Part shown: piece by piece, positions 9,206-44,604 of the stretch
Numbering within the stretch: the stretch's first letter is position 1
How the letters are laid out: each line of letters begins with the position of its first letter
Source of the DNA: a virus
Virus record (IMG/VR): IMGVR_UViG_3300033149_004711
Location: 1-44,604 of that record
DNA length: 44,604 bases
Strand: one strand, 5' to 3'
Position numbers and translations under genes: made by a program
The notes under the pieces: generated by a model
Told to the model about the DNA's origin: nothing
Databases searched by the model: none
Seen by the model: only the letters and a program-made list of their open reading frames with translations

Positions 9206-9493
9206 ATGAGACTAATCCCGTTGCAAGATAGGGTGATTATACGAGAAGTTGAGGGTAAGAACCGCACGAAGGGCGGCATTTGGTTGCCCGACACCGCTGT
9301 GGATAGGCCGGAGGTTGGGGTTGTGCAGGCTGTCGGACCGGCTGTGCGGGAGGGGTTGATTGAAGCTGGAGCGAGGGTTGTGTTTGGGAAGTATGCGGGG
9401 GCTGACATTGAAGTTGGAGGAGTGAGGTTGTTGATTGTGAGGGAGGATGATGTTCTTGCATACATCGAGGAAGGAGAGTGTGATGAGGATTGA
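9206..9493 (+). CDS. groES: GroES-like co-chaperonin
   Basis: Encodes 95 residues, the normal GroES length. ATG 9206 gives MRLIPLQDRVIIREVE, the classical N-terminal strand. The mobile loop KNRTKGGIWLPDTA and the following VGVVQAVGP strand are typical; the C-terminal DDVLAYIE matches the family end. It would cap a GroEL ring, presumably the host's since no GroEL is encoded, as T4 gp31 does for capsid folding. Unlike those cases it sits in the replication operon rather than the head module. Overlaps the next gene by 11 bases. Confidence 0.95.
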   Translation: MRLIPLQDRVIIREVEGKNRTKGGIWLPDTAVDRPEVGVVQAVGPAVREGLIEAGARVVFGKYAGADIEVGGVRLLIVREDDVLAYIEEGECDED

Positions 9494-10715
9494 ACGTGTT
9501 TCGCTTGAGAGTGTTAGGGTTGGCGAGAGAGTGAGGGAGGATGTTGGGGATCTCAACGCGCTTGCGATGTCGATAAAGCGGTATGGGTTGGTGCATCCGA
9601 TTGTTGTTGATGGTGAGGGCAACCTCGTTGCGGGGTTTAGGCGTTTGCGTGCGTGTGAGATGTTGGGGTGGGAGCAGATTGATGCACATGTTCTTGACGA
9701 TGTGGATGAGCTTGGGTTGCGTGAGATAGAGCTTGTCGAGAATATCCAACGAAAGGACTTGGAGTGGCCGGAAAAGGTGAAGAGTGTGCGGGAGTTGTAT
9801 AGGTTGATGCAAGAGAAGCATGGGACGAGTGGGAGGGGGTATGTTGGAGGGTTTGGTGTGCAGGAGCTCGCAGCACTGCTTGGGGTGAGTGTTGGCACAG
9901 TCAGCCAAGACCTACAGCTTGCAGCATTGATTGAAAAAGTTCCGGAGCTGGCGAGTGTAGAGAAGAAGACGACTGCGCTTCGCAAAGTGAAGAAGATGAT
10001 GGATGTTGCGTTGAGGGAGAAACGTGTGGCAGAGCGCTCGGAGATGCCGGAAGGGGTTGTGTTTGTGAACGAGGATTGCAGGGCGTTTATGCGGAGGTGT
10101 GTTGATGAGGGTAAGAAGTTCCATTGTTGCGTGACAGACCCACCTTGGGGGGTTGACCTCGGCGACCTGCGCTTTCAAGAAGCCAACACGGAGTGGGACG
10201 AACAGCAACACGCCCTTGAGTTGATGGAGGAGGCGTTTGGACTGCTTGATCAGGTGTTGGTTGAGGATGCGCATGTTTATGTCTTCTTCGCGATGCGGAA
10301 TTATGATCGGGTACACCGCATGTTGGCGAAGCGGTGGGATGTTGACTGGCTACCCCTAATTTGGAATAAGAGGGTTGGGTCATCCACGATGGTTGTCGAC
10401 CAGAAGTATGTTTCGGCTTATGAGACGATCTTCTTTTGCAAGAAGGGTACGGGTCGCAAGCTCGCCCAACGCACGTCGAACGTCTTCACCTACGACCGCG
10501 TCAGCAAACCCATCCACCCCACACAAAAACCCGTCCAACTGCTTATGCAGTTCATTGAGAACAGCACCGTGCGCGGCGAGAGCGTGTTTGACCCCTTCGC
10601 GGGGAGTGGGAGCACGCTTCGTGCAGCACGGAAGCTCGACCGCGTTGCGGTTGGGTGTGAGAGTGATGAGGTGATGTATGCAAAGGCGTTGGAGATTGTG
10701 GAGGGGGGTGAGTGA
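9483..10715 (+). CDS. ParB/HTH domain fused to a DNA (N4 or N6) methyltransferase
   Basis: Encodes 410 residues from ATG 9483 (GAAGGAGAG upstream). Residues 1-100 are a ParB/Srx-like domain with VVDGEGNLVAGFRRLRA and ENIQRKDL. Residues 125-145, VQELAALLGVSVGTVSQDLQ, are a KorB/ParB-type helix-turn-helix. Residues 195-405 are an amino-methyltransferase with the catalytic DPPW at 219-222 ahead of the AdoMet motif VFDPFAGSGSTL, so beta-class order. It probably methylates adenine or cytosine in phage DNA, protecting it from restriction or marking it. Having both ParB boxes and an HTH suggests targeting to specific sites. Confidence 0.92.
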   Translation: MRIERVSLESVRVGERVREDVGDLNALAMSIKRYGLVHPIVVDGEGNLVAGFRRLRACEMLGWEQIDAHVLDDVDELGLREIELVENIQRKDLEWPEKVKSVRELYRLMQEKHGTSGRGYVGGFGVQELAALLGVSVGTVSQDLQLAALIEKVPELASVEKKTTALRKVKKMMDVALREKRVAERSEMPEGVVFVNEDCRAFMRRCVDEGKKFHCCVTDPPWGVDLGDLRFQEANTEWDEQQHALELMEEAFGLLDQVLVEDAHVYVFFAMRNYDRVHRMLAKRWDVDWLPLIWNKRVGSSTMVVDQKYVSAYETIFFCKKGTGRKLAQRTSNVFTYDRVSKPIHPTQKPVQLLMQFIENSTVRGESVFDPFAGSGSTLRAARKLDRVAVGCESDEVMYAKALEIVEGGE

Positions 10716-10810
10716 TGGACGCGATCGTTATGTTGATAGGAGTGGTGGCGTGGGCGGCGTTGCTTTGCTACATCTGCGACTACATCATCTCGCGTTGGGG
10801 AGGTGAGTGA
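10715..10810 (+). CDS. 31-residue membrane micro-protein
   Basis: ATG 10715 overlaps the methyltransferase stop and follows GGGGGGTGAG. The product, MDAIVMLIGVVAWAALLCYI plus CDYIISRWGGE, is one hydrophobic helix with a short polar tail. Its stop overlaps the polymerase ATG, so it is coupled to both neighbours. It may anchor something at the membrane, or the short frame may only serve translational coupling. Confidence 0.65.
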   Translation: MDAIVMLIGVVAWAALLCYICDYIISRWGGE

Positions 10811-13167
10811 TGGTGAAGTTGAGGAGAGTGCCAGCCGAAGGTCCGAAGGATGCGAAGATTGCGATTGTGGGGTTGGGCCCCGGAGCGACAGAGGAACGGG
10901 AGGGTAGGCCGTTCGTCGGCGCTGCGGGGAGGTTGCTCGACGGTGCGTTGAACCACGCTGGGTTGCTTCGCTCGCAGTGTTATGTCACAAACATCTCCGA
11001 ATACCGCCCGCCTGCAAACAACCTCAACCGCCTCCATGAGGTGGGGATTGACCTTGGGGAGCAGAAGCAACGGCTATACGCCGAGTTGCAGACAGTAAAG
11101 CCGAATGTGATAATAGCGTTGGGGAATGATGTGCTTCGCACCCTCACACAAAAGGATGGGGTGATGGCGTGGAGGGGGAGTGTGTTGGAGTCACCATACG
11201 GGAAGGTCATCCCAACCTTCCACCCCGCCGCGATTGTGCGCGCGTCCCACATGAAGCACCCGTATGAGAAACGGAAAATCCCACTCTACCCCCTCCTCCT
11301 CTTCGACCTACGTAAAGCTGTCCGCGAAGCAGCGTTTCCGGAAGTACGACGCAAGATGCGGAGATTGGTTACAGCACCGAAGTTTGAGCAGGCGGAGGAT
11401 TTTCTGGGGATGTGTATGCGGGCAGAGAAGGTTGCAGTAGACATCGAAACCCTACGGGGTGAGGTTGCGTGTGTGGGGTTTGCGGTGAATGAGGGATATG
11501 CGATGTGCGTCCCGTTTGATACGGGAGTGGGGAGTTATTGGGCGAGCGCGAGGCAGGAAGCGGAGGTGTGGAAAATGGTGATGGAGGTGTTGGCGAATGG
11601 GAAGGTGAAGAAGATTATCCAGAATGCGTTGTTCGAACTGAAGTTCTTGGGAGGACACGATCGCTTACGCGGTGTGTGGTGGGACACAATGCTTGCATCA
11701 CACACCATCTACCCAGAACTACCGCGCGGGCTTGACTTCCTCACCTCAATCTACACCGACATCCCTTACTACAAGCACGAGGGTCGGTATTGGCAACCTG
11801 GGGATGATCCGCATTCGTGGTGGCGCTACAACTGTCTTGATTGCGTAGTGCCATACGAGGTGCAGGAGAAGCAGTGGTGTGAGTTGGAGGAAGCTGGGTT
11901 GTTGGAGCTTTTTCTTGGTGGGGTGATGCCGCAGTTGGGTCCCGCGTGTGAGATGGAGAGCCGTGGGGTGAGGGTTGATTTTGCGCGAGTGGAGCATCAC
12001 AAGAGGGTGCAGGAAGAGAGGGTGAGAGGTGCGCAGGAGCGCTTGGATGCGAAGGCTGGGTGGGAGGTTAACGTCTACTCCACCAAGCAGGTGCAGAAGT
12101 TGCTGTATGATGAGTTGCGGTTGCCAAAGCAACGAAAGGGGCGTGAGAGGAAGGTGACGGCGGACGAAGCCGCGCTTGATAAGTTAGCGCTCAAGTTTCC
12201 TCAGTTGGAGGAACTCCAACTGATCAAACAGATTCGTGCAGCACGCAAACTTATCTCCTCTTACCTACACGATGGAGTGTTCGACGGTGACAGGGTGAGG
12301 TTTGGTGTGTCGGTGGGAGGGACGGAAACTGGGAGGTGGTCAACGGGAAAGACGATTTGGGGAAAGGGGTTGAATATTCAAACAATCCCGCACACACTGC
12401 GTGACATTTTCGTTGCGGATGAGGGGATGGTGTTGATGTACCCCGATGGGAGTCAGGCTGAAGCGAGGGTGGTGGCGTGGCTTGCAGAAGAGGAGAGGTT
12501 GATTGAGGTGTTTGAAAGCGGAAAGAAGGTGCATCGTGTCGTTGCAGCAATGATTTATGGTAAGAGTGAGGATGAGGTGAGTGAGCGTGAGTATGATTTG
12601 GGCAAACGTGCAGTGCATGGCGGGAACTACGGTCTTGGTCCAGAACGCTTTGTGGAGGTTGCGAAGAAGTATGGTGGGATTGATGTTAGCGTAGCTGAAG
12701 CGAGGGAGTTGATTGAACGCTACCACGCCCTTTTCCCCAACATCCGCAATCACTACCAACGCTCAATCCGCGAGCAGCTTCAACGTAACAGGACGCTCGT
12801 GACACCGCTTGGTCGGAAGAGGGTTTTCACCGGAGCGATGGGTGAGGATTTGTTCAAAGAGGGGTATGCGCACGTCGCACAAAGCACGATTGCGGATTGG
12901 CTGAACCGATCGATGGTGAGGGCGTGGTGGAAGGCGCGAGCTGAAGGGGTGGAGGTTGAGTGGTTGGTGCAGATTCACGATGGGGTGTTGCTGCAAGCAG
13001 TGGATGATGCGGAGGTTGTGAGGAGAGTTGCGGAGATTGTGAAGTGGGCGTTTGAATGGGAGTTTCGGTGTGGGAGTAGGATGCTGTGCATCCCGACCGA
13101 CATCAAAGTTGGTAAGGATTGGTTGGAGATGGAGGATGTGAGGAAGGTGTACGGAGGCTGTGGATGA
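10810..13167 (+). CDS. polA: Family A DNA polymerase with N-terminal uracil-DNA-glycosylase-like domain
   Basis: Encodes 785 residues. Residues 1-170 resemble a family 4 uracil-DNA glycosylase (GLGPGATEE, GRPFVGAAGRLL, FHPAA at 137-141) but lack the iron-sulfur cysteines. Residues 200-350 are a 3'-5' exonuclease (DIE at 211-213, NALFELKFL, YNCLDCV). Polymerase motifs: TGRWST at 507, motif A DGSQAEAR at 546-553, motif B GKRAVHGGNYG at 598-608, motif C QIHDG at 721-725. The motif B lysine of Pol I is His603 here. A glycosylase-like domain on a phage Pol A is known from SPO1-type phages. Replicative polymerase of the phage; no 5'-3' nuclease domain. Confidence 0.95.
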   Translation: MVKLRRVPAEGPKDAKIAIVGLGPGATEEREGRPFVGAAGRLLDGALNHAGLLRSQCYVTNISEYRPPANNLNRLHEVGIDLGEQKQRLYAELQTVKPNVIIALGNDVLRTLTQKDGVMAWRGSVLESPYGKVIPTFHPAAIVRASHMKHPYEKRKIPLYPLLLFDLRKAVREAAFPEVRRKMRRLVTAPKFEQAEDFLGMCMRAEKVAVDIETLRGEVACVGFAVNEGYAMCVPFDTGVGSYWASARQEAEVWKMVMEVLANGKVKKIIQNALFELKFLGGHDRLRGVWWDTMLASHTIYPELPRGLDFLTSIYTDIPYYKHEGRYWQPGDDPHSWWRYNCLDCVVPYEVQEKQWCELEEAGLLELFLGGVMPQLGPACEMESRGVRVDFARVEHHKRVQEERVRGAQERLDAKAGWEVNVYSTKQVQKLLYDELRLPKQRKGRERKVTADEAALDKLALKFPQLEELQLIKQIRAARKLISSYLHDGVFDGDRVRFGVSVGGTETGRWSTGKTIWGKGLNIQTIPHTLRDIFVADEGMVLMYPDGSQAEARVVAWLAEEERLIEVFESGKKVHRVVAAMIYGKSEDEVSEREYDLGKRAVHGGNYGLGPERFVEVAKKYGGIDVSVAEARELIERYHALFPNIRNHYQRSIREQLQRNRTLVTPLGRKRVFTGAMGEDLFKEGYAHVAQSTIADWLNRSMVRAWWKARAEGVEVEWLVQIHDGVLLQAVDDAEVVRRVAEIVKWAFEWEFRCGSRMLCIPTDIKVGKDWLEMEDVRKVYGGCG

Positions 13168-35425: not shown

Positions 35426-35923
35426 TCAGCTTGTGGTTTGTAGCTGACAATACTTCTGCTCAAACTGGAACAACACTCTCCCATACTTATCACCCTCGCT
35501 ATCCAGCCTGCTCAACGCGAGTATGATCACGCGGTGGTTGGACGTATCCTCAACATCCACATACACCTTACTATTCGTGGTATCGCGATACACCCCATAG
35601 CTGTTTCCAACGAGGGTTTTAGCCGTAACAGCGCTTGCTCCAGTGCTGTGGTACACATTCGCCCTGAAAACGGTGTCGTGGTTAGGGATGTAAACCCCAA
35701 CCTCATGTGTGCCGTCAGAGGCGTCGTTGTGCGCGTCGTCTGCCGCCACACCCAAAATCGCGGATGGGTCATCACCACACTCCGTCACATACCCACTGCT
35801 TAGGTACACCAACTCCCCCGCTTTGAATGTCTGCGACGCAGCTTCTGGGAAAGTTAGAACCTGTGGGCTGTTGCCGGAGATGGTGTGATCAACCATAATA
35901 GATTGTTGTGCAATTGTTGCCAT
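35426..35923 (-). CDS. Capsid decoration / head stabilising protein
   Basis: Encodes 165 residues; GGAGG lies six bases before ATG 35923. All-beta, with FKAGELVYLSSGYVTE and AILGVAADDAHND, resembling head-decoration proteins encoded just upstream of capsid genes. The position directly before the capsid gene supports this. Confidence 0.75.
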   Translation of the reverse strand: MATIAQQSIMVDHTISGNSPQVLTFPEAASQTFKAGELVYLSSGYVTECGDDPSAILGVAADDAHNDASDGTHEVGVYIPNHDTVFRANVYHSTGASAVTAKTLVGNSYGVYRDTTNSKVYVDVEDTSNHRVIILALSRLDSEGDKYGRVLFQFEQKYCQLQTTS

Positions 35924-35942
35924 TAGCAACCTCCATCACTCA

Positions 35943-36356
35943 TCACTTACTTTCATCGTCCACAATAAGATCGCGGACGTCTACTCCACGACCTCTCACC
36001 TCTCTCTCAACCGCCTTGACCACTTCTTTGAAGGGTCGTTTTGCTTCGCGGTGAACTGCGAGGTTGCGCTCCCTAAACGCTTCCTCAATCGCCTGTGCCC
36101 TCTCCTCCGGCATCTCACACAACACAAGGTCGCCCACCCTGATTGTTGTGTCGACTTGCTTGCCCACCTCCGTAACGCGCAATTTCGACCGCTCCTTCCG
36201 GTCCACAACCTTAAACCCCTTTGCGCGCTGTCGTGTGAGTTGTGTGGGGTGTGCAGTACTCACCCACCGGAATCTAACTCCGGGGTAGTGCTCCTTACCC
36301 CTAACCTCCGTTGGATCGAACCCAAGCTTGTGTATGTCAATTTTCGGGTCTGGCAT
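35943..36356 (-). CDS. Head-module protein of unknown function
   Basis: Encodes 137 residues. GFDPTEVRGKEHYPGVRFRW near the start, then VRVGDLVLCEMPEERAQ-like beta/helix regions and a basic helical C-terminus. Between scaffold and decoration genes, so probably a minor head protein or assembly factor. Confidence 0.75.
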   Translation of the reverse strand: MPDPKIDIHKLGFDPTEVRGKEHYPGVRFRWVSTAHPTQLTRQRAKGFKVVDRKERSKLRVTEVGKQVDTTIRVGDLVLCEMPEERAQAIEEAFRERNLAVHREAKRPFKEVVKAVEREVRGRGVDVRDLIVDDESK

Positions 36357-42413: not shown

Positions 42414-42445
42414 CAATAAAAAAGGCATCCTGAATTAGGATGCCT
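42414..42445 (-). terminator. Terminator of the three-gene accessory block
   Basis: On the minus strand AGGCATCC-TAATTCA-GGATGCCT, a perfect 8-bp stem, is followed by a T-rich tract. It lies 28 bases after the last accessory gene and separates it from the terS promoter. Confidence 0.85.
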
Positions 42446-42472: not shown

Positions 42473-42661
42473 TTAGGGCTTCGAGGATCTCCGAACGATC
42501 CCTGCAAGCGCCCCCCATCGGATTGCGAGCGCTTGCCATTCGCCTGCTTCAGCCAGCTTTCGGACGAGCATGGCTTCAGCAGCCAGCCGCTCGCCCCGAA
42601 TCTCCTGCTCCTTTTGCTTGCAATCGATAACGACTGCAAGCAATTCTTGTAGGTCGTCCAT
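42473..42661 (-). CDS. Accessory small helical protein
   Basis: Encodes 62 residues; ATG 42661 is eight bases after AAAGGAGG. Helical (MDDLQELLAVVIDCKQKEQE). The coding sequence contains strong hairpins such as GCTTGCA...TGCAAGC and GCAAGCG...CGCTTGC. Lacks the G+T coding bias of the rest of the genome. Function unknown. Confidence 0.78.
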   Translation of the reverse strand: MDDLQELLAVVIDCKQKEQEIRGERLAAEAMLVRKLAEAGEWQALAIRWGALAGIVRRSSKP

Positions 42662-42698
42662 TCTCATCACCTCCTTTCGCCAAAAAGAAAAAGGGGGC

Positions 42699-43064
42699 TT
42701 AGCGCCCCCCGAATCCTGCCCCGATGAGCTGTTCGAGCAACTCAAGGGCTTCAGCCCGCTTTTCCGGCGGCAAGCCATCAAGCCGGCTTGCGACCGAACG
42801 GGCTTCTTTCGAAATCCCGCTCGCCGGCCTCTTAGCAGTGAGCGAGCCATCTTTCGATCGCTCGATGATCGAACGAGCGATCTTCAAAGCCTCGGCGACA
42901 TCCTTGCCGCCGGTGGCATTCGTGATCTTCTGCCTTATAGCGAAAAGCAGAAGATCGTCCCTGACCTCTTCTGCGATCTCCTCCACGGAGATCGTCAAGG
43001 AATGCTCGCCTATTTGAAGGGTGAGCATCCCATTCTCGATTTTTGAGCTAATTTTCCTTTCCAT
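42699..43064 (-). CDS. Accessory protein with beta N-domain and shared C-terminal helices
   Basis: Encodes 121 residues; AGAAAGGAGACGAAGC precedes ATG 43064. N-terminal strands (KISSKIENGMLTLQIGEHS), helices, and the C-terminal VASRLDGLPPEKRAEALELL, resembling genes 3112 and 8846. Many perfect hairpins lie in the coding sequence, such as GATCTTCTGC/GCAGAAGATC and GATCGCTCG/CGAGCGATC. Probably an early gene. Confidence 0.8.
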   Translation of the reverse strand: MERKISSKIENGMLTLQIGEHSLTISVEEIAEEVRDDLLLFAIRQKITNATGGKDVAEALKIARSIIERSKDGSLTAKRPASGISKEARSVASRLDGLPPEKRAEALELLEQLIGAGFGGR

Positions 43065-43245: not shown

Positions 43246-43746
43246 TTAGAAGTCCGCTTCAGCTCGGACTTCCCGCAAGGCTTGTTCTTCAGCCTTGCGG
43301 ATTAGGTCACTATACTTGACCCCTTTCGGGGTCTTGTATATAGTGACCTTGAGGTCAGACTCGTAGTCCGACCCCTCCCAATCATGTAGGTGTTTATACA
43401 CCCACACGATATAGACGACCCTGTCTGGGTCGTCCAACCGGGAAAGGGATTCCAGCACGGACTCCCCTTCCCAGGTTTTTCGTTGGGAGTAGGCATAATT
43501 GCTGCCCCACTCCCCTGCCTGACTGACAGCATCCTGCAAGATGCTGCCGTCAGCCATGACGAAATGCACCGACTCCTTTGAGTCAGTGCGTCCCATGCTC
43601 CCGTCCCAGTAATACTGGGATGGGATACAAGCGAGCAGATTTTCATCCGCTCGCTTAACCGTGATGGAGTCGGCATTGCCGACCCCGTCGAGTTCCCGTA
43701 AGAACGGGAACTCTTTAAAAAACCCTTCCAGCTTAAACTTATTCAT
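43246..43746 (-). CDS. Accessory protein whose coding sequence is tiled with hairpins
   Basis: Encodes 166 residues; GAAAGGGGGTTTTT precedes ATG 43746. First gene of the leftward block. No domain recognised; acidic and aromatic residues alternate (VVYIVWVYKHLHDWEGSDYE). Fourteen consecutive stem-loops cover 43250-43713, many perfect over 7-10 bp (see findings). The G+T coding bias is absent. Could be an early takeover gene, or a sequence under strong RNA-structure selection. Confidence 0.82.
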   Translation of the reverse strand: MNKFKLEGFFKEFPFLRELDGVGNADSITVKRADENLLACIPSQYYWDGSMGRTDSKESVHFVMADGSILQDAVSQAGEWGSNYAYSQRKTWEGESVLESLSRLDDPDRVVYIVWVYKHLHDWEGSDYESDLKVTIYKTPKGVKYSDLIRKAEEQALREVRAEADF

Positions 43747-43847
43747 AAAAACCCCCTTTCTTTGTGCCCCCGTGCACCGCAGAGGGGAGCAGGTTGATAA
43801 TCTTTTTCCCCCTGCAAAGGGGAAAAATTTTATTTGCCTTCATATAC

Positions 43848-43864: not shown

Positions 43865-43896
43865 GATCACGCTTAGCGCAAATTTTTCAAAAAGCT

Positions 43897-43907
43897 TAAT
43901 GATTTCA
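43897..43907 (+). repeat. TAATGATTTCA box 3, upstream of the leftward promoter
   Basis: Lies about 32 bp upstream of the -24 element of the leftward promoter, mirroring the box at 310 near the rightward one. Confidence 0.6.
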
Positions 43908-44002: not shown

Positions 44003-44013
44003 TGAAATCATTA
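44003..44013 (-). repeat. TAATGATTTCA box 4 (reverse)
   Basis: Reverse-complement copy, TGAAATCATTA, in the left half of the region. Confidence 0.6.
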
Positions 44014-44195
44014 AGCCTTTTGCTTGCCGCAAATCGTCACTCTCTGCCAAAAAATGCTCGCTCACCCCGCTTTCCCAAAAAGCCTTGCGCTCACCCCAAT
44101 TGCATTCTTACAATGCCCCACAATGCACCGCAAGGCACGTTGCGTGCCCAAACGGTGGAGGGCGCAGAGGGTGGAGGGCGACGTTGGGTGAGCGG

Positions 44196-44227: not shown

Positions 44228-44238
44228 CGAAATCATTA
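44228..44238 (-). repeat. TAATGATTTCG box 5 (reverse)
   Basis: Reverse-complement copy, CGAAATCATTA, 20 bp before the outer left CTTGTAATT box. Confidence 0.6.
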
Positions 44239-44257
44239 AGGATAATTTTTCTAAATA

Positions 44258-44335: not shown

Positions 44336-44433
44336 AGAATCAGAAAATCTCCAATTCCTCAATAATTTCAAGCACTTACACGAACTCTGCACAAAGGCTG
44401 AAAATCGGGCGTATCTACATCCCAGACCCTCTG

Positions 44434-44604
<171 letters not shown>

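What the first reader, a model, noticed from the sequence alone, without database searches (positions are those of the whole stretch)
43246..43746. A coding sequence made of fourteen consecutive hairpins
Stems cover nearly all of 43250-43713. Examples: 43250/43271 (7 bp), CCGCAAGGCT/AGCCTTGCGG 43273-43300 (10 bp), nested GGTCACTATA/TATAGTGACC around GACCCC/GGGGTC 43305-43348, GACGACCC/GGGTCGTC 43414-43434, CAGCATC/GATGCTG inside 43519-43553, 43566-43589, 43600-43624 (11 bp), 43629-43656, GTCGGC/GCCGAC 43669-43683 and GAGTTCCCGT/ACGGGAACTC 43690-43713. By chance about 0.4 perfect stems of 7 bp or more with short loops are expected in 500 bases. The message must code and fold at once; possible reasons are mRNA protection, translation control, a single-stranded DNA stage, or a hairpin-correcting mutation process.
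Basis: partly seen in the sequence, partly recalled or inferred. Interest (0 to 1): 0.85.

Follow-up and report, generated by a model that had tools for sequence, protein, structure and literature searches.

The report
Phage gene folded into fourteen hairpins
A phage gene with no known relative is written so that almost its whole message folds into fourteen back-to-back hairpins while still encoding a protein; it folds more than twice as strongly, relative to shuffled controls, as the genes of a classic RNA virus, and its function is unknown.

Summary
CDS 43246-43746 (-), 166 aa, an orphan, folds into exactly fourteen consecutive local stem-loops. They start 34 nt after the ATG and end at the base before the stop codon. 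Folding energy is z = -19.8 against dinucleotide shuffles and z = -11.9 against synonymous-codon shuffles (0 of 300). The excess over synonymous shuffles is -19.1 kcal/mol per 100 nt. MS2 genes give -7 to -8.5; lambda, T7, phiX174 and related-phage genes are mostly weaker (strongest lambda reading frames -9). The frame scores as coding.

The two downstream genes (42699-43064, 42473-42661) are also hairpin-rich, at MS2 level. Each of the three is followed by an intrinsic terminator, so the feature is a cassette larger than reported. Sense-strand folding beats antisense by more than composition predicts. The amino-acid order of the first gene is itself hairpin-prone (0 of 200 permutations), so RNA structure has probably shaped the protein too.

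Best reading: a translated, sense-RNA-selected, probably nuclease-resistant short mRNA. The selection is well supported; the purpose is inferred. No homologue was found, so covariation could not be tested. ssDNA-stage and hairpin-correction readings fit less well. It is a new, extreme variant of a known kind.

The parts
43246..43746 (-). Gene 1: 166-aa orphan CDS carrying the fourteen-hairpin array
   Evidence: ORF and translation; in-frame codon score +0.24 against -0.02 or less in the other five frames; synonymous-shuffle z -11.9
43752..43760 (-). Ribosome-binding site GAAAGGGGG, 5 nt before the ATG of gene 1
   Evidence: sequence
43714..43746 (-). Start region of gene 1 without local hairpins (first 33 nt of the CDS); first 40-nt windows fold more weakly than shuffles
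43690..43713 (-). Hairpin 1, 10 bp, loop 4
43663..43689 (-). Hairpin 2, 11 pairs, loop 3
43628..43657 (-). Hairpin 3, 13 pairs, GAAA tetraloop
43599..43625 (-). Hairpin 4, 11 pairs, loop 3
43559..43596 (-). Hairpin 5, 16 pairs, loop 4
43516..43556 (-). Hairpin 6, 17 pairs, loop 4
43485..43514 (-). Hairpin 7, 11 pairs, loop 7
43440..43472 (-). Hairpin 8, 13 pairs, loop 5
43412..43436 (-). Hairpin 9, 10 pairs, loop 5
43381..43410 (-). Hairpin 10, 13 pairs, loop 4
43351..43375 (-). Hairpin 11, 11 pairs, loop 3
43304..43349 (-). Hairpin 12, 12 outer pairs around a 6-bp inner stem with a GAAA tetraloop (43318-43333)
43273..43300 (-). Hairpin 13, 10 bp, loop 8
43249..43272 (-). Hairpin 14, 8 bp, loop 8; ends at the base before the stop codon
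43112..43153 (-). Intrinsic terminator after gene 1 (19 pairs, UUCG loop, T tail)
42699..43064 (-). Gene 2: 121-aa orphan CDS (start taken as the ATG at 43064, preceded by AAAGGAG), also hairpin-rich; mean 40-nt dLFE -3.9
42692..42710 (-). Intrinsic terminator overlapping the end of gene 2
42473..42661 (-). Gene 3: 62-aa CDS, hairpin-rich; excess -8.7 kcal/mol per 100 nt
42423..42445 (-). Intrinsic terminator after gene 3

Best explanation
Gene 1 is a real protein-coding gene of a 44.6-kb tailed phage whose mRNA has been selected, as sense RNA, to fold into an unbroken row of short local hairpins. It is the extreme member of a cassette of three small hairpin-coded genes, each with its own terminator, at the head of the leftward (structural) gene arm. 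Shown: the array, its excess over synonymous controls, its confinement to the coding sequence with the start region left open, the coding signal, and a bias of the amino-acid order itself. Inferred: each hairpin (8-17 bp, loop 3-8, spaced about 33 nt) can be opened by one ribosome and refold behind it. Together with the 3' terminator hairpin, the array leaves no unpaired run longer than 8 nt for single-strand-specific RNases or 3' exonucleases to attack, giving a long-lived short message. In effect it is a natural 'superfolder' mRNA. Which nuclease, host or defence-related, supplies the pressure is not known.
For: Synonymous-codon shuffle z -11.9, 0 of 300, while most other window genes lie between -2.7 and +2 and the strongest others at -5.2, -4.2 and -3.4. 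Excess -19.1 kcal/mol per 100 nt against -7 to -8.5 for MS2 genes and about 0 to -3 for T7 and phiX174 genes. 40-nt dLFE -5.0 against -1.5 to -1.9 for MS2. Array starts at CDS nt 34 and ends at the base before the stop codon. In-frame codon score like other window genes. Sense-minus-antisense MFE -43.9 against -24.2 +/- 6.5 in synonymous shuffles. Longest unpaired run after the start region is 8 nt. Strong terminator directly downstream. Amino-acid order itself hairpin-prone, 0 of 200 permutations. The profile 'weak at the start, strong inside' is the known signature of selection on coding-mRNA folding (PMC7063772). Engineered superfolder mRNAs gain stability and expression (PMC8940940). RNase E cuts unpaired, A/U-rich sites (PMC4619774).
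Against: No homologue, so no covariation test and no conservation of either the protein or the structure. All structure is predicted, not probed. One metagenomic contig only. The sense-strand excess is moderate for gene 1 (z about -3) and not significant for genes 2 and 3. Computed mRNA structure does not generally predict mRNA abundance in E. coli (stated in PMC4619774), so the stability step is an inference. Unlike the average profile, the folding does not fade much before the stop codon.
Confidence: 0.5

Rival explanations
1. Dual-function RNA: the array is primarily a structured regulatory or decoy RNA (binding a host or phage RNA-binding protein, or sRNAs) and the ORF is secondary, as in S. 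aureus RNAIII (about 14 stem-loops with a small ORF; from memory).
For: The structure has shaped the amino-acid order as well as the codons (0 of 200 permutations), so RNA constraint competes with protein constraint. The transcript is short and has its own terminator. The protein is an orphan and folds poorly in silico without an alignment.
Against: Open frame of 166 codons with a ribosome-binding site, an open start region, native codon preferences and GC3, and hairpins that stop at the start region and the stop codon. No Rfam match. Only simple local hairpins, no multibranch architecture.
Confidence: 0.2
2. Hardening against an RNA-targeting defence: the three genes must be expressed while a host ribonuclease (toxin, HEPN nuclease, Cas13-like) degrades unpaired RNA, so their mRNAs are double-stranded almost throughout.
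For: Protection is restricted to three small genes rather than the whole genome, which fits genes needed at a particular moment. No long unpaired stretch remains.
Against: No known function for the proteins, no known host, no defence system in view. General mRNA stability explains the same facts.
Confidence: 0.12
3. DNA-level cause: a single-stranded DNA stage, cruciform function, or a template-switching (quasi-palindrome correcting) mutation process that generates perfect inverted repeats.
For: Arms are often perfect. Amino-acid positions are involved as well as silent ones, which a sequence-blind process would produce. The antisense strand also folds strongly (z -15.8).
Against: 20 G-U pairs on the sense strand against 4 on the antisense fold, with an energy asymmetry beyond composition. 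The array respects the start region and the stop codon, which a DNA process would not know. The reading frame is kept. The structural arm downstream of the cassette is ordinary. Most phiX174 (ssDNA) genes show no comparable excess (F gene -2.4, others about -1 to 0).
Confidence: 0.1
4. A run of inserted palindromic mobile elements (as with Rickettsia palindromic elements inside genes; from memory).
For: Such elements do insert in frame in coding sequences.
Against: The fourteen hairpins share no direct repeats with each other and differ in length, loop and sequence.
Confidence: 0.02

Closest known systems
Selection on local mRNA folding in coding sequences (dLFE profile; PMC7063772)
   Same: Weak folding at the start of the CDS, stronger than expected inside, measured against synonymous controls
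   Different: There it is a weak average over many genes; here a single gene reaches about -5 kcal/mol per 40-nt window, while most other genes of the phage are near zero
Structured coding genomes of ssRNA phages (MS2) and genome-scale ordered RNA structure of RNA viruses
   Same: Coding RNA under selection to fold; MS2 genes also beat synonymous shuffles
   Different: Here it is a dsDNA tailed phage, confined to three genes; gene 1 has more than twice the excess of any MS2 gene tested and uses only short local hairpins
Engineered 'superfolder' mRNAs (PMC8940940)
   Same: Coding sequence arranged to be nearly fully paired with a protein still made
   Different: Natural, bacterial-virus context; stability not measured; the amino-acid sequence also appears bent to the structure
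Dual-function structured RNAs such as S. aureus RNAIII (from memory)
   Same: Short transcript with about fourteen stem-loops and an ORF
   Different: Here the ORF covers the entire array instead of a small part
Large ornate phage RNAs (GOLLD, ROOL; Rfam)
   Same: Phage-borne, several hundred nt, strongly folded
   Different: No Rfam match; coding; a row of simple hairpins without a multibranch core

Membership tests
Protein-coding gene | Open frame with start, ribosome-binding site and genome-typical codon preference | tested here: met
   166 codons; RBS 43752-43760; codon score +0.24 in frame, -0.02 or less in the other five frames; GC by codon position like the other genes
Protein-coding gene | Conservation of the protein in homologues | tested here: inconclusive
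   No homologue in viral contigs, bacterial/archaeal genomes, phages, plasmids, Pfam, PHROGs, PDB; absence does not disprove
Selected RNA structure in a coding sequence | Folds better than sequences with the same protein and codons | tested here: met
   z -11.9, 0 of 300
Selected RNA structure in a coding sequence | Sense-strand specificity (G-U tolerated, A-C not) | tested here: met
   Gene 1: 20 G-U in the sense fold against 4 in the antisense fold; MFE asymmetry -43.9 against -24.2 +/- 6.5; not significant for genes 2 and 3
Selected RNA structure in a coding sequence | Compensatory substitutions across homologues | not testable with these tools
   no homologues found
Known structured RNA family (Rfam) | Match to a covariance model at the gathering score | tested here: not met
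   0 matches in the window
Nuclease-resistant mRNA | Longer half-life than a shuffled control | not testable with these tools
   needs experiment
Genome-scale ordered RNA structure | Structure spread over the whole genome | tested here: not met
   Most other window genes near zero excess

The most novel reading that the evidence does not exclude
A dsDNA phage gene in which selection for an almost fully double-stranded message is strong enough to have shaped the protein sequence itself. The purpose would be to keep the message translatable while host or defence ribonucleases destroy ordinary phage mRNA: a natural nuclease-proof 'superfolder' gene cassette.
Probability: 0.2. Interest if true: 0.88.

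Novelty: new variant of a known kind. Interest (0 to 1): 0.7.

Why it matters
Selection on coding-mRNA structure is normally a weak statistical average. Here a single natural gene shows it at an extreme, more than twice the excess of MS2, next to ordinary genes of the same genome that serve as controls. That makes it a clean test case for what mRNA structure buys a bacterium-infecting virus (stability, translation pacing, evasion of RNA-cutting defences) and for how far an RNA fold can dictate a protein sequence. It also offers a natural comparison for engineered structured mRNAs.

Tried and rejected
Homologue searches for the protein: viral contigs twice, genome contigs, phage and plasmid tblastn, the full records of 12 TerL relatives, phmmer against all ORFs of the fetched loci, Pfam, PHROGs, PDB. 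No real hit. The single weak tblastn hit (Pseudomonas phage PRS-1, E 0.8) has an internal stop and reads across no matching ORF, so it was rejected as chance. AlphaFold2 from the single sequence gave mean pLDDT 51.5, pTM 0.49, and no Foldseek match better than E 1e-3 in BFVD or PDB, so no function from the fold. Scans with gene 2 and the portal in viral contigs, and TerL in genome contigs, gave no close relative. A sliding scan of eight related or similar phages found isolated structured patches, the strongest being one long hairpin in MW202554 at 35682-35993 and a gene of vir526 at 2338-2649, but no consecutive array. Repeated palindromic elements were rejected: no direct repeats among the hairpins. 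A constrained-position compatibility count gave only a mild signal and was replaced by the permutation test. Literature searches found no report of a comparable dsDNA-phage gene, but only open-access papers are held. Searches failed (file naming); one search hit the time limit after most results.

Full report
WHAT WAS CLAIMED. A 501-base coding sequence (43246-43746, minus strand) was said to consist of fourteen consecutive hairpins, far beyond chance.

The ORF is there. Folding the coding strand gives 14 local helices of at least 8 pairs, covering 66% of the gene; synonymous-codon shuffles give 6.5 on average and at most 11 in 100. With flanks the sense strand folds at -297.7 kcal/mol against -174.5 +/- 6.2 for dinucleotide shuffles (z -19.8) and the antisense strand at z -15.8. 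The more demanding control, synonymous-codon shuffling, gives z -11.9 with none of 300 shuffles near it.

HOW EXCEPTIONAL IT IS. On a chunked measure the gene exceeds its synonymous controls by 19.1 kcal/mol per 100 nt. The same measure gives -7.0 to -8.5 for the three MS2 genes tested, +0.6 to -2.7 for T7 genes, +0.2 to -2.4 for phiX174 genes, a mean of -1.3 in lambda (strongest reading frames about -9, on the minus strand), and no gene below -7.0 in the four related phages scanned gene by gene. In 40-nt windows, the measure of Peeri and Tuller (PMC7063772), the mean dLFE is -5.0, against -1.5 to -1.9 for MS2 and within about 1.2 of zero for all other window genes tested except genes 2 and 3.

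IT IS LARGER THAN REPORTED. The next two genes on the same strand, 42699-43064 (121 aa, start taken as the ATG at 43064 behind AAAGGAG) and 42473-42661 (62 aa), are also hairpin-rich, with excess -7.7 and -8.7 kcal/mol per 100 nt and mean dLFE -3.9 and -2.0. Each of the three genes is followed by an intrinsic terminator: 43153-43112 (19 pairs, UUCG loop), 42710-42692 and 42445-42423. Genes 1 and 2 in particular have start regions folding more weakly than expected. After the terminase small subunit the structural arm (terminase, portal, capsid) is mostly ordinary.

SURROUNDINGS. The record is a 44.6-kb virus contig. The leftward arm carries terminase, an SU10-like portal and capsid genes. The rightward arm carries a PD-(D/E)XK nuclease, an AAA protein, a ParB/methylase fusion, a UDG-PolA fusion and a DUF3987 protein. 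The same two-armed layout is seen in 44-kb relatives such as MW202554, Desulfofustis phage LS06-2018-MD01 and vir526. Copies of TGAAATCATTAAG cluster in the non-coding region near both contig ends, as expected of a shared control region if the genome is circular (inference).

IS IT REALLY CODING? Yes, as far as sequence can tell. The in-frame codon score is +0.24, in the range of the other genes, and the remaining five frames score -0.02 or less. GC by codon position is 0.56/0.37/0.65 against 0.59/0.43/0.65 for the big genes. There is a ribosome-binding site, and the array begins 34 nt into the gene and ends at the base before the stop codon. The protein is an orphan in every collection searched. 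A single-sequence AlphaFold2 model is of low confidence and matches nothing.

RNA OR DNA? In the sense fold 20 of 186 pairs are G-U; in the antisense fold 4 of 168. Part of this is composition, but the energy advantage of the sense strand (-43.9 kcal/mol) still exceeds that of synonymous shuffles (-24.2 +/- 6.5), about three standard deviations. Genes 2 and 3 alone do not show this significantly. With the respect for start and stop, this favours selection on sense RNA over a single-stranded DNA stage or a template-switching mutation process.

THE PROTEIN IS BENT TOO. If only codon choice were at work, synonymous shuffles would carry no more hairpins than sequences with permuted amino-acid order. 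In gene 1 they carry about four times as many perfect stems of 7 bp or more (1.15 against 0.26 +/- 0.14; 0 of 200 permutations reach it). Gene 2, the decoration gene and the capsid gene show nothing of the kind. So the amino-acid order itself is hairpin-prone. This could mean strong RNA selection on a tolerant protein, or that hairpins arose as inverted duplications and were kept.

HOW IT PROBABLY WORKS. Best supported (0.5): a translated message made nuclease-resistant by a row of short hairpins. The stems are 8-17 bp with loops of 3-8 nt and a period of about 33 nt, about one ribosome footprint. After the start region no unpaired run exceeds 8 nt, and the 3' end is closed by a strong terminator. 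RNase E cuts unpaired A/U-rich sites (PMC4619774), and artificial highly structured mRNAs can gain both stability and expression (PMC8940940). The stability step is inference; in E. coli, computed structure does not by itself predict abundance (PMC4619774). Rivals are a dual-function RNA (0.2), hardening against an RNA-cutting defence (0.12), a DNA-level cause (0.1), and inserted palindromic elements (0.02).

LIMITS. No homologue means no covariation. There is one metagenomic contig. Structure is predicted, not measured. The wider survey covers a dozen phages plus short contigs, not all phages. One step, searching for the best- or worst-folding synonymous version of this virus gene, was left out and referred.

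Noticed in passing
window 43895-43907, 44003-44015, 44228-44240, 44358-44370, 308-320: Five copies (0-2 mismatches) of TGAAATCATTAAG in the non-coding region near both contig ends; chance 0.54. Looks like an operator or promoter element of the divergent control region, and suggests that the contig ends are neighbours in a circular genome.
   Followed up: partly
window 44434-44502: A long (GT)n dinucleotide run in the non-coding control region.
   Followed up: no
window 10807-13167: Uracil-DNA glycosylase domain fused in front of a family A DNA polymerase with 3'-5' exonuclease; full-length matches in several other ~44-kb phages.
   Followed up: partly
window 9447-10715: ParB N-terminal domain fused to an N6/N4 DNA methylase.
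   Followed up: no
L013 35682-35993: In Manatee Spring phage MW202554 an annotated early gene is largely one long hairpin (synonymous-shuffle z -8.3).
   Followed up: partly
L013 20584-21867: A 427-aa gene in the capsid position of MW202554 (which I read as the major capsid gene) folds better than synonymous shuffles over its whole length (z -8.0) though only mildly in local chunks.
   Followed up: partly
L016 2338-2649 and 36802-37509: Two genes of Methanomicrobiales virus vir526 with coding structure near the level of MS2 genes.
   Followed up: partly
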